A DNA stretch of 64,000 nucleotides, taken from Neckera pumila (Eukaryota; Streptophyta; Bryopsida; Hypnales; Neckeraceae). The stretch is from the NCBI GenBank assembly GCA_963969595.1, contig OZ018418.1:6391001-6455000 (forward strand), given 5' to 3'. This document shows, in pieces, positions 11,100 through 59,935 of this stretch. Every line of letters starts with the position of its first letter. Within the stretch, counting starts at the first letter, position 1. The translations under genes were made by a program, and so were the position numbers. The notes beneath the pieces were generated by a model that was not told where the DNA came from, did no database searches, and was given only the letters and a program-made list of their open reading frames with translations.

Positions 11100-11396
11100 C
11101 TACTTGTCGCAGCACAAGGCAAGCAAATTCCCAGTTATACTCCCCAAAACCACTCTAAAGCATAATAAAGTGACTCTATAGATTGAACCCGCGAGATTCT
11201 GTGAAGTACCTAACCTTATTTAGTATCTAAGGTCAGCCAGTAACTATATTTCTCTTTTCGATCAAAATACTATAACCGGAAACACAACAACACCAAAAAC
11301 TATAATCAAACCCTTCTCTCTTTTCTCGGTCCGTCCAACTCTCCGATCCGGTCTGATCAACTCATATCCGCTCTTACCTTCATCCGATTTAGTTTT

Positions 11397-11420
11397 ACCT
11401 CTGTTTCACTATCAGAGGGT
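11397..11420 (-). other. Conserved 24-nt hairpin of element A
   Basis: Minus strand ACCCTCTG - 8 nt loop - ACAGAGGT. The same 24-nt layout is at 18715-18738 in B and 38775-38798 in D, with the stem unchanged and the loop varying. It lies 292 bp from the 3' end of A. Confidence 0.7.
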
Positions 11421-12201
11421 TTGCCGCTTGCTTTTGAGAGTAGCAAGTCCACCACTCCTTTTGTGACTTATAGTGGCTGAAGACCCACTTTTCTATCCTC
11501 CAATCTCCTACACTAATTCGGATCTGGTTTGATTCCTCACAGCAATCTAGAGAACTCTTCGGATCACAGATTACACAAAGATCCCCGTAAGATCTTCTCA
11601 TACTACAACGACCTTGGCGCCAAGTTCCATCTGTACGAAGTCAGGTGGTTACAAATGTACCTGTCTGTTCCAACATCAACTAAAGCTCTTTCAATTATCA
11701 ACTAGGGCAGCAAGATCTCTCAGGAGATCGGACATTCAACCGGATTTCCCACCCAAGAGTTCTAGCACGACTAAGGAATCCCTCCCTATCCGCCTAGCCT
11801 AACAACAGCTTTCTTCCCGGAAACCTAAACCTTAGAAGTACTGAGGAACTGAAATCCACTCCCAACTCTTTCACTACCCGCTCACTTGCATATAAGATCA
11901 AAACAAAAACACCAAAGGGAGAAATCACCCCCAAACCGATGTGCGCCTTCCTAACTCCTCACCATACAGCCCTGCCACACACGGGAGAGACACACAACAA
12001 GAAGCCAATAAAAGGTACAAGCAAAATTTAGGTGAAAAGACTCCTAGCTCCCAAGCAAGGACTGACTTTATATGCAACTGATTTACAAAGGCAAAAAGGC
12101 CCCTACAAATCCGCGCGGAACTTCCAGATCCGATCCTAACCGGCCAGACCGAATCAACATCCGATCCGGTCCAAACTATCTTACACAAAATACATTCGTA
12201 C

Positions 12202-13650
12202 CTACCTTGCAACTCCCTCACCTAGTGGAGGACTTTTGGGTTTCGCAAGTAATTGGTTGAAGACGTCTGTCAAATTCCTGCTCCGCTCCCCGACAGCAGG
12301 ATCCGGAAGATTTGATCTTGGCAATGAATCTAGCTGAATTGCTTGTCCAGGCCCAGTCCTTTGTTGACTCTTCTTTGACTCGAGAGTCCAATCCTTAGGC
12401 TCCCTCGGATTTGATCCTTCTGCCGCGAACAAATCTGGCAGCGAGAGGTCCGAAAGATGGATCTCTCTGGAGTACATAGATCCATTCAACTTCTGGCTGC
12501 TAACGTCCATCCGGTCGGCTGCCGCTTGTGCCGCCACCATTGTCGCTTCCACCCAATTGATAAAGTTGGTCAGGATCCGAACTATTCGGGAACCGGATAC
12601 TTTCTTCTCCTCGTGTACTCCCTTGTCAAACAACTCTGCCTTGACAGCGGCAGATCCAAAAGCTCCAAGAGTATCCTTCACTGTCTTTGCCACCTTCCGT
12701 GTTGCATCCGCCATCTCCCGGACGGCGGTCTTAACTTCTTTGAAGGTGACCATATCTACCTTCAACGTGTCAACTTCAGGAGGAAGCCGACGAATCTCTG
12801 CCTCTTGCTTCTTGTGCTTGTCCGGATTGGTGATGTGTAGTGCTACCTTAGTCAATAGCTTCTGTCTACCGGCGCACCTACCAAGTCTCCGATACTAGAG
12901 AAGGTCCTTCTCTTGACCTCCCAATCCACTTGTATTCTGCTGAGGATGCCGGTCAACTAATTGAATGGATCAGTCAGGTCTTTGAGATCCGGTATCTCCA
13001 CTTCCGGTCCTTGTTTTGGAGTCAACCGGTTGGTAGAAGGGGTTCCTCTCTTACGAAGAGGCATCGTCTTCATCCGCTTCCTCGTCTTGAGGTTCTCCTC
13101 CTCATCTTCTTCTTTCGTCTCTGCTTTGGATTCGGATAATTCCTCCAATTTGTCATCCAAACCCGACTCCCCATACTTCAGGATTCTTGAATATTCCATG
13201 TCTTCTCCTCTATGTTGGTGAGGAATTGGTTGCGCTGGTAGAGGTGAAAGAGGTAGGGACTCAAAGGAGTGGCCCTACTCTTTCCAACTCTTGTAACAAG
13301 CTGGGACACCAGATTGTAAAAGATTTGGGCCCAGTTTACTTTCCATTCCATGCTCAGGGCCCCGAAAATAGTGTTGCCGATGGTCATCTTCACCCTCATT
13401 GGCTTCTGCGAGTGGACGATTGGAATCAGGAACTGGAGAAGGCAAAGGTGTCGGTCGTCTATGCAATCCGCAACCACGTATCTGTCCTTATTGCTTGGCT
13501 CTTCATAAAACTTATCATGGATGAACTCAGCCCTCTGTTCTGCCATGCTTAAATCCCCTAACCGGAAGTTGTAGACCTTTCTCCACCTTTCTTCTTCCCA
13601 TTGGTTGGATGCCCCCAGACAATGTTGTCGAATTGATTTGACAATTTGCC
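12202..13650 (-). pseudogene. Gene of element A (YLFHLY-family protein), frameshifted
   Basis: The N-terminal domain is at about 13650-13178, with residues WRKVYNF, DKFYEEP, LLQFLIPIV, TIGNTIFGA, VNWAQI and PLSPYLFHLY. After a frameshift near 13190 comes a charged, KE-rich linker (13199-12957). Another disruption follows, then a 217-codon open segment (12855-12202). This has a heptad-rich stretch (EVDTLKVDMVTFKEVKTAV) and a polar C-terminus. The domain order matches the genes in B, C, D and E, but the C-terminal half is strongly diverged. I recognise no database family. The conserved core motifs are TIFGAM, VxWA and LSxYLFHLY. It is probably inactive here because of the frameshifts. Confidence 0.65.
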
Positions 13651-14121
13651 CTTTAGCTCTCTCACCATTCGCTCCACTCTAAATTCTTAGGGTTTATCCA
13701 TCAAGCCCAAATAGCCATCGCATTGAGGTCGTCCATGAGCTCGGTTCTCGCCGGTTCCTCGGAGGGGATGACTGGAACTACTTTCCGGAGCTGAATTTTT
13801 GAGGAGGAACTGGGTGCTCCCGGTCTAGTTTTGCGAAGCTGAGGCATGGACACAGACTTGGCTAGCTGGACCCTTTCCGGTCGCTACCTCACTCTCTCCT
13901 AGCCGCACGTCCTGTTCCTCACTTTCTCTAGTCCAATCTCAACCGGAAGACAACACAAAACCTGCAGCCCATACAATCTTGACCTCTCACACACTCTCAT
14001 GCATTTGCACTTAAGTCTTCACGCATGCAACGGCTCTAGCGCAGACGGAGGCGTTATAGTGCTCAAGGTTAGCTCCAAAACTCGAGGGAAGTAAAGGAGA
14101 AAAAATGGAGAAGACCAGCCT

Positions 14122-14131
14122 TTATATAGTC
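14122..14131 (-). promoter_or_regulatory. TATA box of element A
   Basis: Minus-strand ACTATATAAA sits in the element leader, where B and D have the degenerate form TACTTAA (at about 21686 and 35139). In B and D this site is about 172 bp upstream of the ATG. Confidence 0.5.
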
Positions 14132-14400
14132 CCAGGACCTCGACTGGTCATCATGACCTTTTTCGTTCCAGTCCATAGCAATCTGGTTCAACCCTAATCA
14201 GATCCGAGATAAGTTTTGGATGTGGTTCCGCTCTTGAGTACTAATACTTTGACCGGATCAGATCTAGTTTACCCCTTACTGCATTAGCTTTGTCTATCTT
14301 CAGTCTTCTTCTACCTCCTAGCAGGATTCAAATCCAAATTACTCATTTCCGTTCCAACTTTTAGGTAAACAAAGGAAAACCAAAAATTCTGGTTGCGACA

Positions 14401-18472: not shown

Positions 18473-18714
18473 TGTCGTACGCACAATCTAGGCGTAAGTA
18501 TCTTTAGCCACAATATTGTGCTAAAATGACACGAATTATCGTCCCAGGGAATTCCAAGATGATGTTGCACATTCCAAGTTTTCCTGCTTCTCTTTTCTCC
18601 TCAATCCAATCACCTATTTACTCATTTCCGGAACTTTCCCCTATCCGGAATTCTATCCGAATCCGGTTCAACCCGGAATCCGGTTTCCACTTCCAAATCA
18701 AGATGGTTTCTTTC

Positions 18715-18738
18715 ACCTCTGTTTTACCCTCAGAGGGT
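18715..18738 (-). other. Conserved 24-nt hairpin of element B
   Basis: Minus-strand ACCCTCTG / CAGAGGT stem with a loop differing from A and D, 242 bp from the element 3' end. Confidence 0.7.
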
Positions 18739-19586
18739 CCGCTTTGATCTTTTGACTTCACCACTCTGGTTCTCACAATCATTAAACTTGACAAACACAA
18801 ACACACACACACACAAATATTTAGAGGAGTTGCAACAAGGAAAGAAGATCCGGATCCTCACAACTTCCTAGACACCCGATCCGGAAAAGCAGGTCACTCA
18901 GGACTCAATCCACTCATCACTGCAATGATAGATCACAGGGTTTCGGAACCTACCGGGGGTGGTTTGTTAAGTGCTAGACCGTTCCGAGGTTGGCAGACCT
19001 TCCGGGAGAATGGCGACTTCCTCTGGGCGGGTGCTTACCTCCGCACGGGTTGACAGCCAGACTTGCTTCCGCTACTCAGTTGACCGGATGACCATTACGG
19101 TAATTTAAAGGTGCTGTGCACTTTCACTCAGTCAAGAATCTAACACTGTCTCAAATGTACCTTTCAAATGGAACCGACTACCCAAGATCCGGATTCCTCC
19201 TTACCCGTCTTCCCTCACACTCTAGTACAGTCATAAGCATTCAGACCAACACTTGAACACAAAGATGGAATGCCGGAAGCTCACACAGCACTTAGATTAA
19301 AAGAAAGGAATGGAATACAAGATGAAAATCTACTAGGAGGGAAATCCCAGCACAACTAGCTTGCCAGCCCTTAAAAACCCACCAATAGTCAACACCTAAA
19401 AGCCCAAAAAGCAGCTCCGAGAATCCGGGCAACCAATCAAAGAACCCCCCAAAAAACCCGGAAAATCCACTGCCGGCTCGTCTCCAAAATATATCCGGAA
19501 CTAGGGTCCCAAGCGCGGAAAACCCGTTCCGGAACTAGAATTCAAATCCTAATCTAAAATCCAAACATCCTAACTAACTACTTCCT

Positions 19587-21512
19587 CTACGACTTCTTTG
19601 AACTGCTGCCGCCTTGCGTTCCTCCTGTCGTCTTCGAGGGAGTGTTCCGGACACTTGCCCGGGTCTGGATTGGAAGCCGGATCAGTGGAGTTGTTGTGAC
19701 TTCCGTCTCCTCATCATCGAATAAGACTAACTCCTTATCCGACTCCATCTCAATGGGTTGCCCCAATGAAGCTCCAACCAGATCCTCTTCTTTGCCTTCC
19801 TGCTCTTGCTCAAATGCTTCCTCCATGTGGGTGAAGTCTTCCGGATGTGTCCGTGCCGGATTCTCCACCATAGGCATCCGGCTCATCAAATCTGTCTGAA
19901 CCGGAGAAACTAGGACCGTGGATTCTATGTTCCCCTTTGGTACCCTTGCTATGCGTGGAGGGAACGTGACCAGGATCGTCTTCACTGGAGTTTCCTGAAC
20001 CACTCGAGAACCCAAACCCTTCTTGGCAACATTTGCGGTTAACCTCTCCCTCCTTCGTGACGGCCCCGCTTGACCTGCACACTGAGCCGTAGCGTCCTTT
20101 AGCAAGGCTTGAAGCCCTTGCTCCGATATGGAAGTCCTTCCGGCGGGGATTGGTTTGGCAAGAGTCTTCCACAACTGCGCACTTTGCACTTCCGGAAATT
20201 TGGTGAAGTCCATAACTGCCGAATTGAGAGAGCCCAATAGCTTCTTCATCTTCGCCAGTACGTTCTCCATCTTGATCTCGTAATCCACCAGGATCTTGAG
20301 AATCATACTTCCGGTCCCGACGCCCTCTTGCACTAACTTATCGTTGAAGAGTCAGGCACGCATGATTTGATTTGCGGGCTGTCCCACCAAATCCATAAGT
20401 GTCCTCACTACTTGCATCGCATCCGACTCTCTCTTGGATGCGAATTGGAGGGCTTCATCCGCAATCCCCAAACGGGTCTGGAGTTGGATATTCTCCTCCT
20501 CCAGTTTCCGGATCTGGTCCTCCATTTTACTGAACAAGGTCGGATCTGGGCGCTTTCTCAGCTCCCCCAAAATCTCACTTGGCTCCACCTTCATTTTGTC
20601 CGATATCATGCATATAAAATCCGCCAATTCCTCATACCGTTTCCATGTCTCCTGAAACCACTCCTCTCCGGAATCGAACAACTTGTTCCCTCCAAGGTTT
20701 GAGAAGGTCCGGCCCGGTTCCCTCGTTTTCGGAACTTGCTGTTTCCCCCTTGCGTTCGGGTCAGTTGACTTTTGCTACAAACTTTCCGCTCTCTCCGGCC
20801 TTGGTGGTGTGAGTTCCGGAACGGTTTCCTTGACCTGCTTCTCTGATTCCGGAGCCAGACCGTACTTGAGCATCTCCTCGGCTACCTTGTAGTCTTTGGT
20901 TTCCTGCTCACTCACGATCCCGTTGTGGTAGTAAAGGTGGAAGAGGTAGGTGCTGAGTGGGCTGGACTTGGCCCTCTGGACGCTGTCCGCTAGTTTCTGC
21001 ACCATGGCTTTCAATATCCTCCCCCAACGTACCGACCTATCCTCCATCGCTCCGAAAATGGTGTTGCCCAACGTACTGGTGAGCCGAGTGGGCTTCTTTG
21101 GATACAGGATCGGAACCAGGAATTCCAGCACCTATCTCTACCTCACGTCAATGCAATCATGGATCACAAATCCTTCCTTTGGATGGGGTAGATTCCGGAA
21201 CTTCCCTTGAACGTACCCGTCATTCCTCGAGGCATGTCCGAAATCTGCCTTCCGGAATGAGTAGAATTCCGTCCACATCTCCTCGGTCCACTTGGCCGAC
21301 TTCCCTCGCTCTGTCAATTCAAACTGATTCGGAGCTTCGGCCACGACTTCGTGGATCATTGCCTCGTCCTTGAGATTCCAGGGCTTGTGCAACAACCCCG
21401 CGCATCCCATGCTGTCCAAATCACCTTCCAAAAGCACCCGCGCTTTTGGGTCCGTCAATATGACCAGATTGAGCCACTTGGCCATAACTGTCGGTTTGCG
21501 AGATTCCTCCAT
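19587..21512 (-). pseudogene. Gene of element B: 641-codon YLFHLY-family protein with four in-frame stops
   Basis: One frame runs from the ATG at 21512 (MEESRKPTVMAKW) to the TAG/TAA region at 19587. It has no frameshift, only stops: TAG twice near 21138-21132, TAG near 20775 and TGA near 20337. It is the best-preserved copy. The N-terminal domain (about residues 1-235) has LHKPWNLKDE, PNQFELTERG, WTEEMWTEFYSF, GKFRNLPHPKEGF, LEFLVPILYPKKP, LGNTIFGAM and PLSTYLFHLY. The middle part has RPDPTLFSKMEDQIRKLEEE, a predicted coiled coil. The tail has NPARTHPEDFTHMEEAFEQ, an acidic stretch and a Ser/Lys-rich end (SSSKKS). I recognise no family, no nuclease or integrase motif and no zinc knuckle. A structural or Gag-like protein is conceivable but unproven. 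Confidence 0.75.
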
Positions 21513-22008
21513 CCACGCCGACCGAATCCCACTAACCCGGTGCAATTGGCACCCTCCTTTCTTTCTCTCCCTATCCGATCCTATTTCACCACTCTTTCAC
21601 TCAACTAATGCACGCTCCAAACCTGCAAACACACACGCATCCTCGAGCGGAAGAAAGAGACAAAAGAAATGGAGGAGAACGGCTTAAGTAGCCGGCCAGC
21701 GACCGACACCCGTTGGGGCGGCCCATAAATGCGCTGCCTTTTTTTTCCAATGGAATCCTAATTCTTGGACCGGAAGCTAGGTCGTAGGTTTCTTGAATCC
21801 GGATGACCTTCCGGATTACGAATCCCATTAAGATCCGTTCCTTACCCATTTTACAGTTTTTGCTAAGCCAGAACTTATCCAATTTTTTGGTTTGGCTAAC
21901 TGTTTCGAGTTACTACTTCAGTATTCGAAAATTTCGAAAAACCTCACTAATCTACTCCTAAACTAATCCGGAATTCCGGAGTTTGACATTACGTACTCCC
22001 ACAGCCTG

Positions 22009-22650
22009 GATCACCTACAGGCGCCTAACACCCGAGAAGAATGACAACGCCATTTGCGGCAACGCGTCTTTCTACAACCTAACAAACTACAAGGTATAAT
22101 TTCATTCACTAGCAATTATACTCGGCTTGACTGTATAGGCATGTTGTAAAACTAGGACAACATGTTTTGGAGTATTGCAGAACTGAAAGTCTAATAGAAA
22201 GAGGAACCCTATAGTCGGGTCAACATTAGGCAGAGGATTTTGCACACTAGAACCTCACATATCTTGTTCTAATGTTAGTAATGCTCTAACTCAATAGAAC
22301 TTCACAAACGCGGTCATTGACAAATATCAAAGCCTGAACCCAAACAAGGCTGACGCAAGTATTGGTGGTCCTTTGGACCTAGAAAACAAGATCCAAATAA
22401 TCATGCTTCTGGACAATCTCTTTGAGTACTGGAGAGTATTTCTTGCAAAGCAAGCAGATGGTAAAATCATTAGTCCCATCACCTTGAAAACTTTCAAGGA
22501 CGAAAAGCATTACAAAGGGGTACCCCTCAAAAGAGATTTCCTTAGGTATGAGTGGCGCTTCATGAACAAGGATTTTGGGATGCAGGCGTGTGGGAGCCTA
22601 GAAAGTAAGATAAGTCTTGTTAATGAGGAAATTAGAAGAAGGAATTAATA
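22009..22650 (+). pseudogene. G1, 3' part after element B, with a conserved intron
   Basis: The exon resumes with TWITYRRLTPEKNDN (G2: VWLSLGRPPPPKDAN) and ends at a donor AAG|GTATAA near 22098. The acceptor CAATAG lies just before NFTNAV (about 22292), matching EFHAAM after the acceptor at 44485 in G2. The downstream open stretch (about 22300-22647) carries ISPITLKTFKDEKHYKG and RDFLRYEWRFMNKDFG, aligning with FSFKDSK and SREFLKWLRNTPKRA of G2. Both copies keep the intron at the same place, so they arose by DNA-level duplication, not retroposition. It stops shortly before element C. Confidence 0.6.
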
Positions 22651-22779
22651 TAGGTATAATTTCTTGGATTATCCAAGGGTATTTAAACTAAAACATCTTA
22701 CCACAATTAACGTTCCTTGCTAAAAGAGTATTGATAAATAGATTATTAGATTAAAAATAGTAGTTAAAGTTTCCTATTT

Positions 22780-25700
22780 TTATTAAGAACCGGAACCGGA
22801 TTGAGATCTGGAATCATTTCAATATCAAGACTGGGTACCAGAATTCACGGGAAAGGTAACAGAACACCTATCAAGAGCTGGTTGAGCGGATGTAGGATCC
22901 AACGGCCATATCGGAGATTAGGACTGACCATTCAAACGTTTGGATTTTATGAGCACGCAAAAGGGTAACGGCTACCCTAATCCGGCGGCCGTTGATTTGA
23001 GGGAAGTTCTAGGGGTCCGAACTTCCATCCTCATTCTTACGTTTGAGTTTGGCTGGTGTTTGGAGTGCGAGTTAGTAAAGCTTTTGCATGCAGATGTGTC
23101 TGGAGAGGATAGAAATGTTTCCGTTCTTGGAGTGGAGGAAGCGGAAGAGGTTCTTACCAAACAGAAAACTGCTCGTAGTTCTTTGAGAGAGGCATCAGTT
23201 AAGTGGATTGTTAGCGGCTTGAGCAATGGTGAACGTTGAGGGCAGCCAATCAGGACAGCTCTAGTTTAAGACAATCTATTCGGACATTCCAAAGGATGAT
23301 GGAAAGTAGAATCAATTGGAGGAGGATCTGGGTCAGATTGAGGTCACCTCTTTTTTGAAGAAACCTTGGAGCTTGAGAGACAAACACATGATTGGCGAGC
23401 TCCTGAAGGGCTAGTCAAACAAGTGGGTGAAGATTGCTTGTGCTCTCTCCAACAAGTGGACGATCAAAGTGTGGAAGAGTGTATACAACTTTCCGCGCGC
23501 TGGAGAGGGATTGGCCTCGCGGTTAGATAGGCACACAAAAGGTAAATTCCTAAACCCTCCTCATGCCAAGGACGGATACACAGTTGCAGACAATAAGTCA
23601 CCCAAAGATAAGAGAGTGTTAGAATTCTTGGTCCCCATCCTGTAACCGGAACAGCCAAACCAGATTATAGTAATATAAGCCAACACCATATTGGCACGTT
23701 GAGTGGAGAGAGGAAGGTATTCTGGGCAGGAATTGTGAGAGAATTAGTCTAGAAGATGGTTGCCTCTCTAGGAGGTATGAAGGCGACTTCCATAGGACCT
23801 TTTCTATTTCACTTATACGACCATCTAGAGGTACTGAGGAAGACGGAGGAAGTGGTTCTAAAAGCAGCCTCCACAATGAGTAAACTTGACATTAGCCCCC
23901 CTCAGAAGAAAGAGAGTGAGAATAAGATGAAAGGAACGGATGAGGAATCCGAAAAAGGGTCATCAGCAAAGAAGCAAGAGTCTTTAGAGAAGATCCCATC
24001 CTCTAAGAAGAGAAAAGGGTCCCAGAGTGGTTTGAAGGGTTTTGAGGAACCAAAAGTTGAGAGAGAAGATCCTCTAGGGAAAATTATTGAGGACCTTGAA
24101 AAGATAAAGGAGGACTTGGATACTGAAAGGGGAGCAGTCAGGAAAATTTGTAGGCTGCTTGGTGGAATCAAAGTATCTGAGCTCGTAGACTCGGTAGAGG
24201 ATCCGATGCAACAGAAGGATACCGAGCAATGGAAAGAGCAATTTAAAGGACTGGCCAATGAGAATGAGTCACTTCGTCAGAGGTTAGACAAGAGTGAGGC
24301 AAAGAGTAGGAAAGTGCGGAAACTTTCCGCTAAGTCAAAAGAGACCCTCATGAGGGTCAAGAAGTTCATCCAGCATTCCGAGAACGTTCTCAACAAAGCC
24401 AAGTGCTTTGACGAGGAAGTCCACAAGGCTGGAGCAGAGTCCTTGGTCAAGGCTGTCCTGGTTTGTGTGGAGTACTTGGATAGTGAGGAGAAGATAATGT
24501 ATGACATTCAAGACGCTCTACAACAAGCGGGTCAGTTTCCGGACACGCTTGTGAAGTCAGGGAAGAGTGAGGAAGAGAAGACACCTGCCAAGGATCCTTC
24601 CAAGCAGAAGTTGGAAGGAGGTGAGGGTTCGGCACACGGATCCAAATCCAAGGGCAGGATCCAGAAGAAGAAGGATGAGTTCCGGATTCCGAAGAGCAAA
24701 GGCGCCAAACCCTCTTTGCAAAAGACAAGCAGGGTCAAGTTGAAGACCACATTCAAATAGGCACGGGAGGTATCTTCTGAGAGTTACTATATGAGGGAGG
24801 ATGAGTTGCCAGTCAATCAACAAAGGAGGATCCGGATCCGAGTCCAAGTCTCAACCTGATTTGGAAGAGGAAGAGGAAGAGGAATCTGACCTAGCCATGA
24901 TATGTTCGTTGAGCTTTCAAAGAGAAAACTTCCGCTAAGGGTAAGATAGTTAAGCCTTCAGCAGCAGGAAGCAGCCGCCAAGGAAGGGCGCATCCAAATC
25001 CAAGGAACCTTTTCTAAAGAAAGGTAGAAAGTAGAAAGTAGAAGTAGAAGTTCTTAGAATAGGCCTAGAAACAGTAGGCAGAAATTACAGTAAAGTATAG
25101 TTCAATTCAGTTAAGGAAAGTTAAGTTTTTGAGTGTTAGAAGATACTTGGCAAGTACTTTTTAGCTGTATGCACCTGGACTAAGGCTTTCCGGGTTTTTA
25201 GGATCTGAGATTCACATTTTGCGGATTGGATCGGTTGGTAGGAAAGTCAACTTAGAAGGATAAGGAATGACACTTGTCATTCCTTGGTCCTTTGCTTTTG
25301 TTTCTGGAGATCTTAAGGGTTTTCTTTGGTTGGTTATTTAGGGGTTGGAAGTTAGTTTCAACTTTGGGCAGTTTATACTCTTGTTTTCTATTTCAATCTT
25401 GCATAGAAAGCTTGGATTTCAACTCCATGAGTATTGGTCTAGAAAGTCCTGGTATTGTGTTGAGGGGTTAGGCGGTGCTTTTACCATTGCTGGTTCAAAT
25501 AGCTTGGTTGTGGAAATTTGAGAGGAGAAGTTACCCCCGGATTCTGTCTGAAGTCAGTTCCGGGAATTGAAGTGAGTTGGTTGAGATACCTTGTGTACTA
25601 GGAGTGAAGTTTAGTTGCTGCCGTTACTTGGAAACTTCTGTGGAAGATAGCTGCTCTTAGATTGGGTGCGTGTTGCAGGAAGCAGGCGTATGCTAATTGA

Positions 25701-25905
25701 CGTGTTGATGAGGTCCTCCTACATCTGGAAGTGAGTGATGTGCAAGTAATTAGGATCGCTTAGATCTAGTCACCAGATTCTGCCTTAAGGAATCGGGTTT
25801 GGATAGGTCTGTCGTTGTAATAAGCAAAGGTTGTGGGGGGTTCCTGAGTGACCTACTAGTTTGGATTGATTTCCGGATCAATTGTGACAAAGAATCCCCA
25901 TCCAA
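22780..25905 (+). mobile_element. Element C of the TGT...ACA family, ends missing
   Basis: CCGGAACCGG-rich DNA starts near 22785. The gene is at 23226-24760. A 3' region follows that still matches D up to TTCCTGAGTGACC and TTTCCGGATCAATTG (25837-25890; D at 38607-38640). The last ~400 bp of the family, including the 24-nt hairpin and terminus, is absent, and no 5' terminus could be placed. No target duplication is visible. Confidence 0.6.
23226..24760 (+). pseudogene. Gene of element C: YLFHLY-family protein, broken N-terminal half
   Basis: From the ATG at 23226 the frame reads FKTIYSDIPKDDG, FLKKPWSLRDKHMIGELL, GKFLNPPHAKDGY and LEFLVPIL. It has TAG stops at about 23262, 23307 and 23412, a TAA near 23643, then a frameshift near 23710. 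The second half is open for 334 codons (23756-24760). It contains GPFLFHLYDHLEVL, a charged Lys/Glu linker, coiled-coil heptads (KGLANENESLRQRLDKSEAK) and a basic C-terminus. The C-terminal half differs from that of B and D, so C represents another subfamily. Most stops are TAG in place of likely Gln codons. Confidence 0.65.
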
Positions 25906-34650: not shown

Positions 34651-34652
34651 TA

Positions 34653-34815
34653 TAGGAAGAACGGGAGGATAATACCGGGAGGGGGGTATTTTTTTCACAG
34701 TGTAACTTCACCTCCCCAAAATCTTACTTAAAATAAAAATTTCAGGCTAGGGGGGCGTAGTTACACGTTGAAAAAAATATCCCCCCTTCTCGATATCGAC
34801 CTCCTGTTCTTCCTA
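34653..34815. mobile_element. Small MITE with long terminal inverted repeats
   Basis: The left end AGGAAGAACGGGAGG...GGGGGTATTTTTTTCA...GTGTAACT pairs with the right end AGTTACACG...ATATCCCCCC...CCTCCTGTTCTTCCT. The imperfect arms are about 60 bp around a ~40-bp centre. TA or TAT flanks both sides, as for Stowaway/Tc1-mariner MITEs, though the exact duplication is ambiguous. It lies in the satellite array, 9 bp before element D. Confidence 0.75.
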
Positions 34816-34818
34816 TTA

Positions 34819-34823
34819 TGCAT
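34819..34823. repeat. 5-bp target-site duplication, left of D (TGCAT)
   Basis: Identical TGCAT follows the element at 39030-39034. Confidence 0.8.
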
Positions 34824-35136
34824 TGTGGGAGCACGCAATGTCATTATTTAGAAATCCGGATTAGTTTAGGATCAATTCCGTAAATATTTTTGAAATTTTG
34901 TAGTAGTGGAACCTTGAACCGGAACTTTTAGTAGAAACTAGGTAGCCCGAAAGTTCCGGCTCACAAAAGTTTGTACAAGGAATAAGGGACGGACTTTTAC
35001 CGGATCCGGAAACCGGAAGGAGATCCGGATTCCGGCAAACCTACAAACTAGGGGTCCGGCCTAGGGAAACTAGGGATCCGTTTGAAAAAGGCGATGCATT
35101 AAATGACCGAACCAACGGGTGTCGATCACTGGCCGG

Positions 35137-35148
35137 GTACTTAAACGG
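35137..35148 (+). promoter_or_regulatory. Possible core promoter of element D
   Basis: GTACTTAAACGG corresponds in position to TACTTAAG in B and to the TATA box in A. It is about 175 bp before the ATG and is followed by a TTCTCATTCTTCTC initiator-like tract. Confidence 0.4.
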
Positions 35149-35314
35149 ATCATCTTCTCATTCTTCTCATTCTTCTCCCTCTTTCTTCCGCTCGAGGAGG
35201 TGTGTGTTTGCAGGTTTGGAGCGTGTTTTCTCTTAGAAGAGTGAAAGAGTGGTGAGTTAGGCCGGATAGGGAGAGAAGGAAAGAAGGGTGCCGATTGCAC
35301 CGGATTAGAGTTCA

Positions 35315-37933
35315 ATGGCGGAAACGTCAGCGCAAGGACAGAAGACAGTTCCGTCTGTCAAACTCTTATACCCAATCATTCCATCTGATCCTGGTGAACG
35401 TTTAGAGTTAGAGCAAGATCTGTCCACACTAGGGTGTATAGGGTTCATCCGGAAACCCTGGACGGTGAGGAGTGAGGACTTTCTTCGGGAGTTAGTTTTT
35501 GGGGCGCCGAACCAGTTCGAGCCGACGCCAAGAGGGCGGTTATCATCCTGGACAGAAGGGATGTGGGCGGAAACTTACGGGTTAATGCAGTTCGGATCCG
35601 GAAGCACAACCCGGACGGATAAGTTTCATGAGGGAAAATTCAAGAAGCCACCGCACCACAAGGAGGGCTTCTCTGTGGGTGACTGTAGCAATGAGCATCA
35701 TAGGAGGTTACTGAATTTCCTGATTCCCATAATATATCCGAAAAGCCCACGAGAGTTACGGTCACAGTCGCGAATACGATTTTTGGAGCGCTAGAAGGCC
35801 GGGTCGTGAATTGGGCAGGCCTAATTCACCAGAAGGTCAAGAAGATGGCGATGGCGGTCGAGAAGGCCAAGCAAAGTCCCGTCAGTACGTACTTGTTCCA
35901 TTTGTATCATTATTATGATTACATGACCCCGCCGGAACAAGTTGCGTATGAGACCGGAATGCAGATCCTGAAATACGGACTCACAGAGGAGTTGAAGCCG
36001 ACGGGAGAAGCGACTGAAGAAGAAGAAGAAGAAGAGGAGTATCCGTAACCGAAGCCGCTGGAGAAGAAGAAACGGCATAAGTTAATCAATCCGGATTCAC
36101 GAAGAGCAAGTATGGACGTGCCGGAATTGAATCCGGCCCTGAACCAACCATTGCCGGAGTATACCGATATCTCCGACTTCTATGATGCCGAAGCCCGGTG
36201 GATGGCACAGTGTCAGAAGATGCACGCCGAGATGGCAGGGGTGATCACGGGAGTCGCCAGCAAATTGAACGTTGAGACGGATCGGATCTTCAACGAAATC
36301 TGGAAGAGACCTGATCCGGCATTACTCCAAGAGAAGGACAAGGAGATCGCACTACTGAAGGCGGAACGGGATAACTACAAGAACAATTTTCACTGGACGG
36401 AGGGACAGATGATCTCAGCCCAGAAGAAGGAGACGGATGCCCTGAAGCTCGTCCAAGATTTGAAGGGGTTGGTAGAACAACCGGAACATTTGATCATCCG
36501 GTCCGCGCTCTTCACGAAGAAATTAGATACCGATGGCATCGTCACCGAATCTCGAGTGTTGCAGGTCTTGATCGATTACGAGGCCAAGATGAAGACCGTT
36601 TTGGACGAAATGAGGCAGCTGCTGAGACCTCTGGATGTGGCCAAGGACAAGTTTGGGCCGCTTCCGGATATCTTCATGGCCCGAGGAGGGCACTTGGTTC
36701 TACTACTACAAACAACGTGCGAACAAGTGGTTTCTAATAAACTATAATTTCAACCTAAAATTTTGAGCATTGTTTGGTAATGACTATAGGTTTCTATTGC
36801 CAAAATTTCCAACTCAAATGAAATATGGAATGATTTCTAGAAGGGGTTGAAAATGAACCTAAAATGGCATATTTTTCAACTCAAATATTTATAGAGAACA
36901 CATTTAGATGACTATTGCATCAATATTCAACTCAAAATGAGCTTTCAATAGAGAATTATTTTTAGGATTTTTTTGTTCATTTTTTAGACAATTTTTGAGG
37001 ATATAATATAGGGGTGTGAAAGTTATTTTTCAGTTCCGTAGTGTATCTATTTACTTCAAAAATTTGTAACTAATTATCATTAGCAAATAAAAATATCAAT
37101 AATTCAAAACATAAACTTTCAAATTAGGAGAATATATTCATATTTTTTTTGTTTTCATTTACTTAAATTTTAGGATATAATATAGGGGGTACAAAGTTTT
37201 GTTCGCACGTTGTTTGAATTAGATACACTAAGTGCACCCCCTGAGCTTCATGGAGTCGCCGGTCAAGTACGGAGTCGGAACTTCCGGAACAAAAGAAGAC
37301 CCAGGTTTGAAGTCTCTCTTCAAGCTGCCCCAGGTACCTTCCTCAGATCAATTCCAGAAGTGGGGAACCGTGAGTACTTTTAGTCCTTCCTCACAGTCTC
37401 CGGCAGGATCCGGAAAGATAGGGCAGAGATTGCCAATCCGGAGGGACCTCTTAGAAGGTATGGGAACGATAAATCCGGCAAGGGAGCATCCGGAGAAATT
37501 CCCCCACATGGCGGAACCATCAACAGCACAGGGGACACAGTTGATCGATTTGGGAGATCCGGCTCCAGAGGCGAGATCGGAACTCAAGCCGGAAATCCGG
37601 AAGAACACGAAGACGGAAATAGTGGAGGTTGAATTCTCGGATCCGGAAGAAGAACTGGAGATGGTAGAACCTGGGAAGCAACTCAAACTTCAGAAGTCGG
37701 AGAAGCGAAAGCCGGAAGGTAAGAAGCCAGCCAAGCAAGAAATCGAGGACTCTGAATCCGGTGAGTTTGAATCCGCTACTGATTCTGAGGAGGATACGGA
37801 TGAAGAGGAGACGTCTCCTGCGACTCGGCAGAATCCACCTCGAGCTGCCAAGATGACGCCAGCCAAGGGTTCCGGTAAATCAACAACCAAGCAAGGAGCC
37901 GGGAGTTCAAAGAAGTCTCGGATGACCAAATAG
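35315..37933 (+). pseudogene. Gene of element D: YLFHLY-family protein, split by frameshift, stop and MITE
   Basis: ATG at 35315 (MAETSAQGQ). The N-terminal domain has FIRKPWTVRSED, PNQFEPTPRG, WTEGMWAETYG, GKFKKPPHHKEGF and LLNFLIPIIYPKSP. A one-base shift near 35748 moves the frame to NTIFGALEGRVVNWAG and PVSTYLFHLYHYY. A TAA at 36046 interrupts a Glu-run linker. The same frame continues with KRPDPALLQEKDKEIALLKAE (coiled coil) and VLIDYEAKMKTVLDEMRQLL. The 508-bp MITE enters at 36709. The C-terminal part (37217-37933) carries NPAREHPEKFPHM, an acidic/Lys-rich stretch and an SSKKS end, as in B. The family is unrecognised, and the copy is inactive as it stands. Confidence 0.75.
36709..37216. 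mobile_element. 508-bp MITE inside the gene of element D
   Basis: Perfect 18-bp terminal inverted repeats CAAACAACGTGCGAACAA (36709-36726) and its complement (37199-37216). The interior is AT-rich, unlike the CCGG-rich host element, and non-coding. It has repeated AACTCAAAT and AGGATATAATATAGG segments. I see no clear target duplication. The family is not assigned. Confidence 0.85.
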
Positions 37934-38774
37934 TTCAAAGGGGATTACTTGTGGTGGTGGATTAGAATTTAGTTAGTTAGGTCCGGAACCGGAATCCTAG
38001 TGTGGGTCCGGGTTCCAGAAGTTTAGGGATAAGGACTTTCCGGTTAAATCGGGATTTCCTTGGTGTGTGTGTGAGGTTGCCCTGGTTTTGGGCTGCCCTT
38101 TGTTGTTTTTAGGCTGTTGACTTTGGTTTTGATTTGGGTTTTTAAGGGCGGGCAAGTTAGTTGCTTCTCATTCCCTCCTAGTTGATACTCATTTGTATTT
38201 CATTCCCTTTTCAAAATCTAAGCTCTCGGGTATGCAGTTTGGCTTTATCAGTGTATCCGGATTGTGTTGCCTTGTGGTTTGAGTGTTGGAAGGAAAGGAC
38301 GGGTGAGGAGGAATCCGGATTTAGGAGAATATGGTCTAAGTCGAGAGTGTGCTATTGTAATGTTGTTGGATTGTTGACTTAGGAGCTGCGCACTGTGTCT
38401 TTAAATTACTACTAGAGTAGTCTGGATCTGAGTAGCGGGGAAGCGAGTCTGGTTGTCAAGCCGTGCGGAGGTAAGCGCCCGCCCAAGGAAGTTCCCACTT
38501 GTCCGGAAGATCTGCCAACCTTAGAATTCATCCAACCTCTAGAAAGATCACACTCCCTTATACTTAACTCCGAGATCTGTCATTGTAGTTAGGGAGAGTG
38601 AAGTATTCCTGAGTGACCTGCTTTCCGGAATTACCATCCGGGAGCTGTGAGGATCCGGATCTTCTCATCTTGCTACAACCCTTTGAGTACTTGGGGTGTT
38701 TTGATTTGTGTTTGTTAGAATTGTAGGAGAACAACGAGTGGTGAGTCCCTACCCCTCTACAAGACCAATAGTGG

Positions 38775-38798
38775 ACCCTCTGATGGTAAAACAGAGGT
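38775..38798 (+). other. Conserved 24-nt hairpin of element D
   Basis: ACCCTCTG - ATGGTAAA - ACAGAGGT, 231 bp before the element end. Equivalent hairpins of identical length are in A and B. Confidence 0.7.
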
Positions 38799-39029
38799 AT
38801 AGAAAACCAGATTGGAAACAGAGACGTAAACCGGATTCCGGATAGTTTATGATCCGGATTGTGAAGGAAGCCGGAAAGAGAGAAAGTAAGTAAGAAGAAA
38901 AGAAAGATAGAAAAGCCGGATAGCTAGAACATACTATATAGAATCCGGAAATTCCCTGGGACGATATTTCGTGTTATCTTGGCACATTTCCGTGTTAAGG
39001 ATACTTACGCCTAGATTGCGCGTACAACA

Positions 39030-39310
39030 TGCATGTTGGAATAAAAAAAAATTGTACAAGTTGTGAATATTTAGAGCATCACTTTAGAATCTAGGTGCAC
39101 ATGAAAGTTAGTTTTTTTTTTTAATCTTCTACGTAACCCAAAATTCATGGGCCTTTGCATGTAGTTTATAAAAATGAAATCTCCTAAGTTTAAAAAATAG
39201 TGCATGTTGGAACGGGAAAAAAAATAGACAAGTTGTGAATATTTAGAGCATCTCTTTGGAATTCATGGATGCATTAAATTTGCATTAAAAAAAAATCTAC
39301 TATGAAAATC
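39030..39310 (+). repeat. ~176-bp satellite units continuing after element D
   Basis: GCATGTTGGAATAAAAA, TTGTACAAGTTGTGAATA and, about 180 bp later, GCATGTTGGAACGGGAAA. This is one and a half units in the same orientation as 32330-34650, which shows D and the small MITE split one array. Confidence 0.8.
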
Positions 39311-40539: not shown

Positions 40540-41250
40540 ATTTGAAGCTTTGATTCTTCTCCGGATTCCCCAGCGCTTGCCAATTTGACTTTTGATATTG
40601 TTGTTTTTCCATGCAGTGACTCTGGAGTTTGTAAGGTTAGGTTTTTTTCATGGCAGTCACAGCAAGTGAGAGCGGGTTTTTTGTGAGGGTGTGTTTGTGA
40701 GAGTGCATAGAATTTTTGTTTTTGAGAGTGTGTTCATCTCTTACAAATTGTTTGTGTGAGGGTTTAGGGTCATGGATAAAGCTTTGATTCTTCTCCGGAT
40801 TCCTCAGCGCTCGCCAATTCAACCTCCTATATTGTTGTTTCTTCCATGCAGTGACTCTGGAGTTGGAGTTTGTTGGGTTGGGTTTCCTAGTTTGATGGCA
40901 GTCACGGCAAGTAAGAGCAGGTTTTTTATAAGGGTGTATTTCTGAGAGTGCACTGAATTTTTGTTTTTGATATCTCTTGCAAATTATTTGTATGAGGGTT
41001 TACAATTGCGGGTGAAGCTTTGATTCTTCTCTAGATTCCCTAGCGCTCGCCAATTTGACCTTTGGTATTGTTGTTTTTTCCACGCAGGGATTCTGGAGTT
41101 TGTAGGGTTAGGTTTCTTTGATAGTAGTCACGGCTAGTGAGAGTGGATTTTTTGTTAGTGTGTGTTTGTGAGAGTGCACAGAATTTCTGTTTTTGAGAGT
41201 GTTTATCTCTTGCAAATTATTTGTATGATGGTTTAGGATCACAGGTGTTT
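40540..41250. repeat. ~235-bp tandem repeat, three units
   Basis: AAGCTTTGATTCTTCTC recurs at 40545, 40779 and 41015. Units share GCGCTCGCCAATTTGACC, TTCCATGCAGTGACTCTGGAG and AGAGTGCATAGAATTTTTG. Flanked by GTGAGTGGCGGGTGTTTTGGGAGA repeats. Confidence 0.85.
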
Positions 41251-44352: not shown

Positions 44353-44442
44353 TTCAACTCGAGACGTCTTGAATGCATATGCAAGTACTGATCTCCATAT
44401 CATATTCATGATGCTGTATGCTTCAACTCAAGTTGACTTAAT
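44353..44442. repeat. Two 21-bp palindromes inside G2 intron 2
   Basis: 44353 (TTCAACTCGA / TCTTGAA) and 44422 (TTCAACTCAA / GACTTAA), both within the intron between the donor at 44342 and the acceptor at 44485. The equivalent intron in G1 lacks them. Confidence 0.75.
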
Positions 44443-55600: not shown

Positions 55601-57745
55601 TTTAAATTTATCAATTAAGATGCAAAGCTTGAGATCCATAGGAATAATTCTTAAAATGTGAGGACACCAACATCGGAAGCAAGGTCACTGTACACTTGAA
55701 TAGTTGAATCTATTCAATTTATAATGCAAAAGTAGAATCTGTCTCTAGACTAGACTGCGTTATGCCACCGCAAGTTGAATCGCTGTCATATTGAAGTGAA
55801 TACATTCCAAACCTAGGTTGATTTTCCTCTTGCGCTAGAGATCTTGAGAAGCCTCAAAGCTAAATTGGAATTGACTTAATGATCAACTACACTGCTGTAT
55901 CTATAAGCAAATAGACAGAGATCATCAATCTAACCTAGGTGCATTGGTTCTTGAATCCTAGCACTCCAAGCCAAGAGCAACCTACAAAGTATTACAGAAG
56001 CACAAAATTTACAAGACCACGGCGAAGCTAGCATCAATCCATACGTCCTCAATCAAAGGAGCAACCTAATGTGGAGGTGCCTTGCCACTTCTTGCGCATG
56101 GCTATCCGCATCTCGACTCCAAATTCCGTTCCATGATTATTTGGTTCCTGATGCAAGTAGCCTCCATTGTGTATTGCTAGGTGTAGTGTGAAGGTCAATT
56201 ATGTCATTAGAAATGAGTTGAGTACTTGTGATTTTGTACTTATGGAGATGGGGAACTCTATGCCATGAAAGAGAGAACTCGGACTTTGATTGGAGAACAG
56301 ATGGAGAGAACACCAAGTGGCACAAACTCCTTAATTTTCATGGAGGCTATAGAAGAACTCTTGGACGAGCTTCTTCTACATCCGGATGGAGTGCTGCTAA
56401 TCTGCTATAGACTCTTGATTTTGATGAACTTGCTCCAGTGCTCGACAAGTGCAAATACTTTAGCTCCCTTAATAGCAAAATGAGGTAACATCTTTCAAAT
56501 ATTAAAGGAGATTTGAAGTGATTGACAACATTTTCAAGTTGAGGGGGTCAAGCACGTTGGCGTTTGTTTAGGAGAGTAAATTCCCAAGTCAAGGGATGGA
56601 TATAAACAAAGTTTTTATTTTCAAAATGTCACATGTAGGACCTGAAAGTACAATTGACCTGGTGAAGTGAATGCAAAGTGAAAGGAGGCTTTGAGATGTG
56701 TAGCTAATGTTTGATCATGTCAAACGCATCAAAGGATGGACCACCATGGCATGTCATGTATATAATTTTGTTTATTATTGTTTAATGACCATTGCTTTCC
56801 AGGTCTGTATTGTACACATAAATGAAAATCTAGTGAGACTAAAAGGGCCACTACTTGCATTACAATGACGTCAGAGAATTGTAAATCTGCAAGCAATGAC
56901 TACATGATGTTCTTTTGCTTGAAGTGCCGACGCGTATGACCACGGCACCCGAGGCCATTCATAGTGTGCACCCTAAATTCTTTACCCTTAATTGTAGGCA
57001 TAATGGAGAACTAATTTTCATTGCCATCCACATTCATTTGTGCCTTCAGCCAACATGTTGACTAGCCCCTAACCCTATACCCTTCCACAATAATAGATAT
57101 AGTTTGGTTATACTCTAATATACCAACCACGGCAATAGGAGACAAACCCTAAATCCATGACATGACAACAAAAACTTTAATTTACATCTGAAATGTTCCT
57201 ATAGGTACTGACTTTGGAGTATTCTTTTCCTATGCCAACCAAGCTGTAAAGTCTGCAATTTGCTTTAATTGCGGACGCCCTACCATTTTCATTGGCCTTG
57301 CTAATACATTTTTCTTTTGACAAATGAAAATTCCAAGTTTGAATAATATGAAAAACACTTTCATTAAACAGCAAGACAATATTTCATGTATTGCCAATAG
57401 AATTTCTACGTTGATGTCATTTAGTTTAAAAAAAATTTCATCCATCCATTCTTATACTTTCATCCAATTTATTCACCCATCCATTCTCCTATTTTCTTCC
57501 ATTTTTTCATGAATCCATTCTTCTACTTTCATCCAATTTTTTTCATCCAATTTTTTTATCCATCCATTTTTCTACTTTCATCCAATTTTTCCACTACTTT
57601 CATCCATTTCTTCCAGCTCCTTCTATATAGATCCCGTAACTCCCACCATCCCAATTTTCAACAAATTCTTTCCTACTTTCCATTCACTTTCACCCTAAAC
57701 CAAGAATAATTCCATCCAAATTAAGGTTGACTTTCAATCCATTTT
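55601..57745. other. Non-coding stretch with pyrimidine-rich repeats
   Basis: TTCATCCATCCATTC-type simple repeats lie at about 57437-57610. Otherwise AT-rich DNA with short open frames (for example 56137-56483 on both strands) that show no conserved motif. Confidence 0.45.
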
Positions 57746-57785
57746 AATTTTTTTTCGCCTCACTTTTTACTTTTTTGTTGAAGAT

Positions 57786-59500
57786 CTATGCTTCCCCCGC
57801 ACCATTCCCTGCTCGCCACTCATCACTTGTCACTCCCCACTCGCAATGTTGCTTTGGCGATGTCGCATCTTCCTCCGTTTTTGACTCAGTCACATACTCG
57901 TCTTCATCGGAAAGCTTGACCCGATCCATCAGCTCCTTGATAGGTGAAGTTTGCTCCATGTATACAAAGCCTGTCGGATGGATCCGGGCTGGATTTGACA
58001 TGGTCCCTATCCGCTGAATAAGATCATGACGGACATTGGATCTGGGCGTCTTAAACCATCCTTCTCTACTTGGCTGGATTTGCAAATCAGTGGGTGGAAC
58101 GGAAAACTTTTGTTTGCATCGGAACAGACTATCTACTCGGCTCCTTCATACTTGACTGAAGTTCTGTTGGCTGATCCAGAAGTATCCCCAAACCCCTGGA
58201 CGGAGTCTGATCTGGTTTGCTTGGCTTGGCCAGAGTTTACAGGAACAAGGTGCCAGAAACTTCCGGAAACTACGAGAAGTCCATGTACTTGTTTGGACCA
58301 AGATGCTCCAGCAGTTGGCTCATTTCCTTCAACACCTTCTCCACCTGAGCTTGAAAGTCAATAATCACCGTCATCACCTTCAATCCGGTTAGATGGCCTT
58401 CACTCGTCAGCCAGTTGTTGAAGAAGTTGGCTTTCATCACGACCTCCGCCGGTGGTCAACCAGTGCTGTCAAATTCCAGACAAGCTAGATAGCTTCTGAC
58501 TCCTTCTGCCTTGCTACTTCCAGTTCTCCCTCCACCCGGTTCACTCGCGCTTGGAGGTCATTTCGGTCTTTCTCCAAGTTCCGAATTTGCTCTTCCTTTT
58601 TGTGTAGCACCTAAAGCTCCGCTCTTTGCTTGATTTTGTCTACAATTTGCTTTGGTTGGTTCACCTTCAACTCTTCCATGACATCGATGAGCAAATTTGA
58701 CATGTCATCGTGGAACACCCGAGCCTGTTTCACCCAATTGATTTTGGTTTTGAAGAATTTTGTAATCCTTCTAGCTTCTGGAATCTTGTTGGGCTCTCTT
58801 CTATCCAATGATGCCTGTTTGTCTCACATAGCGTCTATCAACTTCCTCCATTACAGAAAGTTTGGGCCTTGTGGAGAGCCATCTGACAAGCCGTCAAATG
58901 TGCAAATCCAGAGAAAATTCCCCTTTTTTTTTTTTTTCAAAATAAAAATTAAAAAAAATTAAATTAAATCCCAATCTTGCATGGCACATCCCTTGACAAT
59001 ATTTTTGAGAATTTTTTTTTTTTTTTATTATTTTTTTAATTTTTTAATTTTTTTTTTTGTAAATGCACATTTTACTGTGGTTGCAGCGGCCCTCAGCAGG
59101 GTCCAGATATCTTCTATTGCCTTCTTCCCCTATGTGAGAATGGCTCTTTTTTCTCCTCCAATTCTTCATCTTTAGATTCCATTGGATCCGGCGGATCCAG
59201 TTGGACTTCCTCCGTGAGGTCATATCACAAAATCTCAGCCCACGTAATGTACGCGACTATCTCGGTAGCACCTAGAAACTCTCTCTGGTCGTACAGGTGG
59301 AACAAGTACAGACTAATTGGGCTAGTTTTACCCCTCATTACATAAGCAGACAACTTGGATACTACATCTACGATGATCTTTCCCTAATGTACGGATCTAC
59401 CCTCCATCGCCCCAAAGATGGTCTTAGGCATTGTGACCATCATCCGGATTGGCTTTTTCGGATATAGGACCGGAGTCAAAAATTCTAGCGCCCATTGCCA
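57786..59500 (-). pseudogene. Gene of element E: YLFHLY-family protein relic
   Basis: Segments are LEFLTPVLYPKKPIRMMVTM, KTIFGAMEGRSV and SPISLYLFHLYDQREFL (59490-59260). After low-complexity T/A-rich DNA at 58921-59065 come KINWVKQARVFHDDMSNLL and KKEEQIRNLEKDRNDLQ (coiled coil, near 58600). The tail is NPARIHPTGFVYMEQTSP at about 57990. The order equals that in B and D. Stops and frameshifts are many. It is the most decayed copy, and the 5' third is missing. Confidence 0.65.
58921..59065. repeat. Poly-T/A-rich low-complexity tract inside element E
   Basis: Runs of T and A interrupt the E gene. Confidence 0.85.
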
Positions 59501-59935
59501 GGGTTGGCCGGACGTCTGGGCGTCTGCGTCCGTGTCAGGACGTCCGCGTCCGGACGTCAGGGGGGTGGCGGACATCCTGTGACATTTTTTTTGGGGGGGG
59601 GGTCCTTTTTTTTTAAAATATAACGCCCGTCCGATGTCTACTCAGCCACAATTGCAGGAAGCGTCCACCAGTCCGTTCGCCATTTTTGGCAGACGGTCTG
59701 GCGGTCGATGGGTGAGTCCGTCCGTCCGTCCGCCAGTCCGTTCGCCGAATCCTGCGGACGGAATGGCAGACGCACGCACCGACCGCCAAATCATCCGCCA
59801 AAAATGGCGGACGGGCTGGCGGACGCAGTCACTGTCCGCCAGTCCTCCAATGTCCGTGCATTGCCGCGTTGACTGTCTGCACCGCGACAATTCGCTCCGT
59901 CCACAAAATCCGTCCGCTTTGCCGTCCAATTCCCG
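59500..59935. repeat. GTCCGCC/CGGACG minisatellite-like GC-rich repeat
   Basis: Degenerate GTCCGCCAGTCCG and CGTCCGCGTCCGG units on both strands, with a G8 run near 59595. The base composition is far from the AT-rich surroundings. A 145-codon open frame across it is a repeat translation. Confidence 0.7.

What the first reader, a model, noticed from the sequence alone, without database searches (positions are those of the whole stretch)
34824..39029. A family of TGT...ACA elements with 5-bp target duplications but no LTRs and one unrecognised gene
Seen: D (TGCAT/TGCAT), A (CTACT/ATACT) and B (ACTTG/GCCTG) have short inverted TGT/ACA termini, 5-bp flanks, alignable leaders and 3' regions, and one long gene. 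C, E and a 3' fragment are partial copies. Known: TG...CA ends plus 5-bp duplications are the signature of retroviral-type integrases (LTR retroelements, and Ginger-like DNA transposons with 4-5 bp duplications). Inference: these are either gene-carrying solo LTRs or, since promoter and gene fill the element and no LTR pair is seen, non-autonomous elements moved by an integrase supplied elsewhere. I know of no described plant family with this layout.
Basis: partly seen in the sequence, partly recalled or inferred. Interest (0 to 1): 0.88.

Follow-up and report, generated by a model that had tools for sequence, protein, structure and literature searches.

The report
Gene-carrying mobile elements dense with CCGG

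Summary
The observation largely holds. D (34824-39029) is a real insertion: its ends coincide to the base with the homologous copy B, and it interrupts a ~175-bp satellite with a perfect TGCAT duplication. A and B have weaker flanks (4/5, 3/5); C and E are decayed. No direct-repeat pair lies inside A, B or D. The gene is broken in every copy, but codon positions show past protein-level selection; its family matches no Pfam family or solved fold. Best reading (0.6): solo LTRs of a retrotransposon whose 3.3-3.7 kb LTR holds a gene cassette. Support: TG..CA ends, 5-bp duplication, promoter-gene-tail order, and one relative whose gene model runs into a protease-RT polyprotein. No LTR pair was seen; the host genome could not be searched. 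New: 88 of the window's 103 WCCGGW sites lie in these elements. TCCGGA occurs 20 and 22 times in B and D (shuffles 1.3, 1.7), mostly at non-homologous positions and also within codons; A prefers ACCGGA, equally in both orientations. That resembles VANC target motifs and suggests, without proof, that the gene product binds its own element.

The parts
34824..39029 (+). Element D, best-defined copy (4206 bp with its nested insert, 3706 without)
34819..34823 (.). Left copy of D's 5-bp duplication, TGCAT
39030..39034 (.). Right copy of D's 5-bp duplication, TGCAT
35138..35144 (+). TACTTAA promoter-like box of D, 177 bp before the gene
   Evidence: no transcript data
35315..37933 (+). Gene of D, broken by a frameshift, an in-frame stop and the nested insert
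36713..37212 (.). Nested MITE-like insert in the gene of D; no WCCGGW site
37934..39029 (+). Non-coding tail of D, with blocks conserved in B up to the last base
18473..22003 (-). Element B (3531 bp)
19587..21512 (-). Gene of B: one frame with 4 in-frame stops, 641 codons read through
11105..14400 (-). Element A (3296 bp), divergent subfamily, TGTCGCA inverted ends, 4/5 flanks
12202..13847 (-). Gene of A, broken by several frameshifts
22589..25890 (+). Element C, decayed; 5' end intact, 3' end set by eye
57500..59700 (-). Element E, decayed gene remnant; limits approximate

Best explanation
A, B and D (and the remnants C and E) are most likely solo long terminal repeats of an LTR retrotransposon, probably Ty3/gypsy-like, whose unusually long LTR (3.3-3.7 kb without the nested insert) contains a complete gene cassette: promoter, open reading frame, 3' region. 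In the intact parent two such LTRs would flank gag-pol; recombination between them leaves one LTR with the 5-bp duplication. Shown: precise ends of B and D, the insertion and duplication of D, the layout, past protein-level selection on the gene, and the dense WCCGGW motif. Inferred: that the parent has an LTR pair, that the gene is read from its own promoter, and that its product (helical domain, coiled coil, disordered tail) acts on the element itself, most simply by binding the dispersed motif and marking or shielding its own copies.
For: Ends identical between B and D to the base, start shared with C. D in a satellite with a perfect 5-bp duplication. D's 3' end TACAACA fits the LTR consensus YNYAACA; B's TACGACA and A's TGCGACA miss it by one base; 5' TGTGGGA and TGTCGCA miss TGTTRNR by one base (consensus: PMC3601003, passages). 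TACTTAA 177-178 bp before the gene in B and D; TATATAAA 281 bp before it in A, about 10 alignment columns away. No terminal repeats inside. P0012's tail finds 23 other proteins; of 10 scanned, Asp_protease_2 matches 4 and RVT_1 matches 1, all below Pfam's curated cut-offs. Besides P0012's own contig, one contig length (191,674) occurs in both the 38-protein gene set and the 24-protein pol set. Identity at codon positions 1/2/3: 57/61/31 and 49/62/39% in two parts of B-D.
Against: No copy has a partner LTR or adjacent gag-pol: 126 scanned ORFs (of 201) show no RT, integrase, RNase H or gag family at E<=0.001, and the relatives' pol proteins find nothing here. B's flanks match 3/5 and its ends are not significantly inverted. 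No AATAAA in A-D and no TATA-like box in C. P0012 is one gene model and may be a prediction artefact; shared contig lengths are weak evidence for abundant repeats. A gene filling an LTR turned up in no plant paper I listed, so the prior is low.
Confidence: 0.6

Rival explanations
1. Non-autonomous DNA transposon, Ginger-like: short inverted TGT/ACA ends and a passenger gene, moved by an integrase-type transposase supplied from elsewhere.
For: TGT...ACA ends, a 5-bp duplication in D, gene-filled interior without LTRs. The ends of A and D are more inverted than about 98% of random pairs.
Against: Inverted similarity is short and not significant in B. No integrase family among the ORFs scanned. 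The two ends are otherwise asymmetric.
Confidence: 0.2
2. The gene belongs to the internal region of a retrotransposon, or was captured by one lineage, and the present copies are rearranged remnants.
For: Known plant additional ORFs lie in the internal region (PMC3485330, PMC11728184, PMC7264820, passages). All copies here are decayed.
Against: B, D and the far more divergent A share the order end, promoter box, gene, tail, end although synonymous sites are saturated, which looks like the inherited unit. The gene family has many copies elsewhere.
Confidence: 0.1
3. About the motif only: the WCCGGW excess has nothing to do with the encoded protein; it consists of sites for a host factor or reflects a mutational or copying bias of the element.
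For: Short GC-rich motif in elements that are richer in GC than the rest (0.44-0.50 against 0.38). D is also rich in ACCGGA (12 against 2.3), so the split between subfamilies is not clean. In the middle part of D's gene the excess is absent. No binding has been shown.
Against: Dinucleotide shuffles of the elements and synonymous-codon shuffles of B's gene do not reach it. A differs from B and D in the preferred variant, Fisher p 0.0008 and 0.005, variants chosen after looking.
Confidence: 0.4

Closest known systems
MMTV superantigen gene (sag) in the LTR
   Same: A complete accessory open reading frame inside an LTR, read from LTR promoters (PMC9412291, passages)
   Different: Animal retrovirus; sag lies in U3. 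Here the gene lies downstream of the promoter-like box of a 3.3-3.7 kb unit. No protein relation was tested
Plant LTR retrotransposons with additional ORFs (Retrosat2/RIRE3 ORF0, Tekay 5'aORF, Athila 3'aORF)
   Same: Extra gene of unknown function in plant Ty3/gypsy elements; Retrosat2 also has LTRs over 3.2 kb with ends TGTCACACCC...GGGCGTGACA (PMC3485330, PMC11728184, PMC7264820, passages)
   Different: There the aORF is described in the internal region, not in the LTR. The present proteins show no match to Transposase_32 or ATHILA among the hits listed
VANC/VANDAL anti-silencing system of Arabidopsis
   Same: A mobile element with an accessory gene and a short motif strongly enriched in its own copies and varying between related elements (PMC5735166, abstract and sections 8-9 read)
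   Different: VANDALs are MULE-type DNA transposons (recalled). The VANC21 motif YAGTATTAY lies mainly in non-coding DNA, often in tandem repeats, arrayed in one orientation; here the motif is orientation-free, dispersed and also in codons. No DUF1985 or DUF287 match listed
Ginger DNA transposons
   Different: No integrase gene found and no long inverted repeats

Membership tests
LTR of an LTR retrotransposon | TG...CA ends with short inverted repeats | tested here: met
   A, B and D all TGT...ACA; inverted repeat significant in A and D, not in B; consensus TGTTRNR...YNYAACA from PMC3601003
LTR of an LTR retrotransposon | Short (about 5 bp) target-site duplication | tested here: met
   D 5/5 with a satellite context; A 4/5; B 3/5
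LTR of an LTR retrotransposon | Promoter (TATA) and poly(A) signal | tested here: inconclusive
   TATATAAA in A, TACTTAA in B and D, none in C; no AATAAA in A-D
LTR of an LTR retrotransposon | Occurs as a direct-repeat pair around gag-pol | not testable with these tools
   No such pair in the window; 18 requests to search the host genome did not complete
Ty3/gypsy superfamily | Associated gypsy-type protease and RT | tested here: inconclusive
   Only through gene model P0012 and one shared contig length; nothing in the window
Ginger DNA transposon | Own integrase-type transposase | tested here: not met
   No such family in element ORFs nor in 126 window ORFs; a supplier elsewhere is not excluded
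VANC family | DUF1985 / DUF287 domains | tested here: not met
   Not among hits at E<=10 for 8 proteins nor in the 25 shown of 52 families for 39 members
VANC-like self-recognition system | Motif dense in own copies, rare elsewhere | tested here: met
   88 of 103 WCCGGW sites in elements making up 25% of the window; rest of the genome not searched
VANC-like self-recognition system | Encoded protein binds the motif and removes silencing | not testable with these tools
   Needs an experiment
Plant aORF proteins (Transposase_32, ATHILA) | Pfam match to PF20167 or PF03078 | tested here: not met
   Not among the hits nor in the 25 shown of 52 families, both at E<=10

The most novel reading that the evidence does not exclude
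A retrotransposon lineage has put a sequence-specific self-recognition gene inside its LTR. Every LTR, even a solo one, is then a self-contained source of a DNA-binding protein whose target (WTCCGGAW in B and D, RACCGGAW in A) has been spread through the whole LTR, codons included, and which shields the element and its relatives from silencing. It would be a VANC-like system evolved independently in LTR retroelements.
Probability: 0.22. Interest if true: 0.88.

Novelty: new variant of a known kind. Interest (0 to 1): 0.64.

Why it matters
LTRs are normally thought of as regulatory DNA. An LTR that is itself a complete gene cassette would keep its gene even after recombination has removed the rest of the element, and could go on supplying its protein in trans. 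If the protein binds the motif that saturates these elements, this would be a second, independent case of transposons that mark and protect themselves, testable with a defined protein and a defined 8-bp target. It also points to a many-copy protein family that matched no Pfam model.

Tried and rejected
Pfam scans of the gene products gave only weak matches below cut-off, largely coiled coils. Foldseek with the full model (PDB and viral) and with the 225-residue domain (PDB), and VIA-align on 242 chains, gave no credible fold. A PDB profile search gave weak matches, best E 0.021, to a designed coiled coil. IMG/VR scans with the gene alignment, the pol alignment and two DNA patterns, and one scan of prokaryotic genomes, found no relative. 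Plasmids (DNA of D) and phages (P0001): no match. Rfam: no match. The conserved CCCTCTGA..GTAAAACAGAGG block looked like a hairpin, but the RNA around it folds no better than shuffles in the three copies. That the tail resembles the end of Athila/Tat LTRs is recall only and is not used as evidence. A suspected precedent in roo/rooA was a mere phrase match. PMC4963935 and PMC10508981 (passages) did not decide the lineage. An RNA-level role of the motif is disfavoured: the asymmetric form lies 6 times in each orientation in A, 3 and 3 in B, 8 and 4 in D.
Full report
WHAT IS THERE. Five relatives lie in 64 kb: A 11105-14400 (-), B 18473-22003 (-), C 22589 to about 25890 (+), D 34824-39029 (+), and E about 57.5-59.7 kb (-). 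B and D align from TGTGGGAG at one end to GTAC(A/G)ACA at the other and no further. C starts with the same eight bases. D sits inside a ~175-bp satellite; unit anchors run at about 175-bp spacing up to 34481 and resume at 39036, directly after D, and the TGCAT duplication is perfect. A MITE-like insert (about 34651-34816) lies just left of D; leaving out that insert, D and one TGCAT, the unit after D is in register to within a few bases (my arithmetic). The flanks of A match 4/5 and those of B 3/5. At randomly shifted positions a 5/5 match occurs in 0.0016 of trials (D), 4/5 or better in about 0.025 (A), and 3/5 or better in about 0.12 (B). Inverted ends score as high in 36 of 2000 random pairs for A and for D, but in 672 of 2000 for B. 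So the insertion signature is strong for D, fair for A, weak for B.

NO LTR PAIR, NO ENZYME. Self-comparison of A, B and D shows no terminal direct repeat. I scanned 126 of the window's 201 stop-to-stop ORFs of 70 aa or more; the 75 left out are shorter than 76 aa or lie in the elements, except three of 76-82 aa outside them. Pfam at E<=0.001 found only DUF7869 (2 ORFs), a kinase (1) and an NIF phosphatase (1). The main ORFs of the element genes were scanned and show no enzyme domain above cut-off. The pol-type proteins of relatives find nothing in the window. By eye, no flank of A, B, C or D shows a PBS after the 3' end or a purine tract before the 5' end.

THE GENE. Layout: 5' end, a promoter-like box (TACTTAA 177-178 bp before the gene in B and D; TATATAAA 281 bp before it in A, about 10 alignment columns away; none in C), a pyrimidine-rich leader, the gene, and a non-coding tail of about 1.1 kb to the last base. 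The gene is broken in every copy: B has 4 stops, D a frameshift, a stop and a 500-bp nested insert, A several frameshifts. Identity at codon positions 1/2/3 is 57/61/31% and 49/62/39% for two parts of B-D and 57/63/34% for the N-terminal part of B-A, but only 34/48/34% for the C-terminal part of B-A and 44/47/28% for B-E. Synonymous sites are saturated (NG86 dS 2.2-3.7, or not computable in 6 of 11 pairs) while the N-terminal protein is kept: selection acted before decay. Outside the gene, blocks of 72-85% identity between B and D alternate with stretches of 48-68%; bins within the gene show 46-58%. So parts of the non-coding DNA were also under constraint.

THE PROTEIN FAMILY. A search with B found 18 proteins at E<=0.01; the profile search listed 36 at E<=1e-3; 38 ids were collected in all (in both only about 8000 candidates were scored). 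The sources are ENA, JGI and Logan; none carries an informative name. Identity to B's N-terminal 225 residues is 38-45%. AlphaFold on 39 sequences gives mean pLDDT 63 and pTM 0.48 for the whole: a confident helical domain (about residues 11-60 and 71-220), long helices to about 450, and a disordered tail. The domain folded alone gives pLDDT 73 and pTM 0.72, with weaker ends. No credible Pfam, PDB or viral match.

LINK TO A RETROELEMENT. One relative, P0012, is a gene model whose first ~345 residues are this family and whose last ~40 belong to another protein. That tail finds 23 further proteins. Of 10 scanned, Asp_protease_2 matches 4 and RVT_1 matches 1, all below Pfam's curated cut-offs; the longer sequences read as protease followed by reverse transcriptase (my reading). 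Apart from P0012's own contig, one contig length (191,674) occurs in both sets. This suggests that the gene lies upstream of, and in the same direction as, a gypsy-type pol. It rests on one model and one contig and could be an artefact.

A SECOND SIGNAL: THE CCGG MOTIF. The elements are full of WCCGGW: 88 of the window's 103 sites fall in A-E, which make up 25% of it. By element: A 16, B 26, C 7, D 34, E 5; the nested insert in D has none. In the six 1-kb flanks of A, B and D there are 3 sites, two of them inside C. TCCGGA occurs 20 times in B (dinucleotide shuffles: mean 1.3, maximum 5 of 200) and 22 times in D (mean 1.7, maximum 5). A has only 3 TCCGGA (mean 0.9, maximum 4) but 12 ACCGGA (mean 1.2, maximum 5); D is rich in both (ACCGGA 12, mean 2.3, maximum 6); B's 6 ACCGGA equal the shuffle maximum; C is weak. 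B and D share 14 CCGG columns (B sites within 3 columns of a D site: 19) of 43 and 58 sites: most sites turn over while density stays. In the gene of B, TCCGGA occurs 9 times against 1.4 in synonymous-codon shuffles (0 of 500 reach it), in all three frames. In D's gene the C-terminal part has 6 against 1.4 (0 of 500), the N-terminal part 2 against 0.2 (4 of 500), the middle part 2 against 0.9 (101 of 500, no excess). In A the asymmetric ACCGGA lies 6 times in each orientation, 11 of 12 as RACCGGAW; in B 3 and 3, in D 8 and 4. That argues for recognition of double-stranded DNA. TCCGGA versus ACCGGA differs between A and B (Fisher p 0.0008) and A and D (0.005), not B and D (0.40). The variants were chosen after seeing k-mer ranks, so these p-values are optimistic. 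The elements are also richer in GC and CpG than the rest; without CCGG sites CpG observed/expected is 0.61, 0.72, 0.47 and 0.76 in A-D, against 0.53 for the rest with its CCGG sites.

HOW IT MOST LIKELY WORKS. I think these are solo LTRs of a retrotransposon with a gene-bearing LTR (0.6). The published LTR end consensus (TGTTRNR...YNYAACA; PMC3601003, passages) is met at D's 3' end and missed by one base at the other ends. The product may bind the dispersed motif and act on the element's chromatin, as VANC does (PMC5735166, abstract and sections 8-9 read): there a TE-encoded protein binds a short motif dense only in its own family, and motif and protein both change between related TEs. Against a plain VANC: no DUF1985/DUF287 hit listed, no tandem arrays, and sites in coding DNA. 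Binding, expression and the LTR pair are all unproven.

PRECEDENT. MMTV has sag within the LTR (PMC9412291, passages). Plant aORFs are described in the internal region (PMC7264820, PMC3485330, PMC11728184, passages). Library searches for genes inside plant LTRs listed none that I recognised (listings only unless stated). The library lacks most subscription journals.

LIMITS. The host genome search did not complete (18 calls), so copy number, LTR pairs and the genome-wide distribution of the motif are unknown. Five relatives, all decayed, carry the DNA evidence.

Noticed in passing
34651-34816: MITE-like palindromic insert (TAGGAAGAAC...GTTCTTCCTA) in the satellite, immediately left of element D
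   Followed up: partly
36713-37212: Nested MITE-like insert in the gene of D, with inverted CAACGTGCGAACAA ends and internal imperfect repeats
   Followed up: partly
22004-22588: 585-bp piece with a gene-like ORF between the 5' ends of B and C, which lie head to head; its ORF 22298-22645 has no NCBIfam match and no listed Pfam match
   Followed up: partly
27237-28064 (-): ORF matching DUF7869 (E 1.7e-34)
   Followed up: no
42800-49500 (+): Series of long ORFs, one with an NLI-interacting-factor phosphatase domain (E 2.4e-11)
   Followed up: no
62759-63805 (-): Kinase-like ORF, weak Pkinase match below cut-off
   Followed up: no
3209-4340, 6660-9166, 32400-34676, 40543-41202, 54525-55608: Several tandem repeat arrays with units of about 119, 177, 175, 235 and 267 bp
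   Followed up: no
38776 (+), 18714 (-), 11396 (-): The block CCCTCTGA..GTAAAACAGAGG is kept in A, B and D 253-314 bp from the 3' end; role unknown, no stable RNA fold
   Followed up: partly
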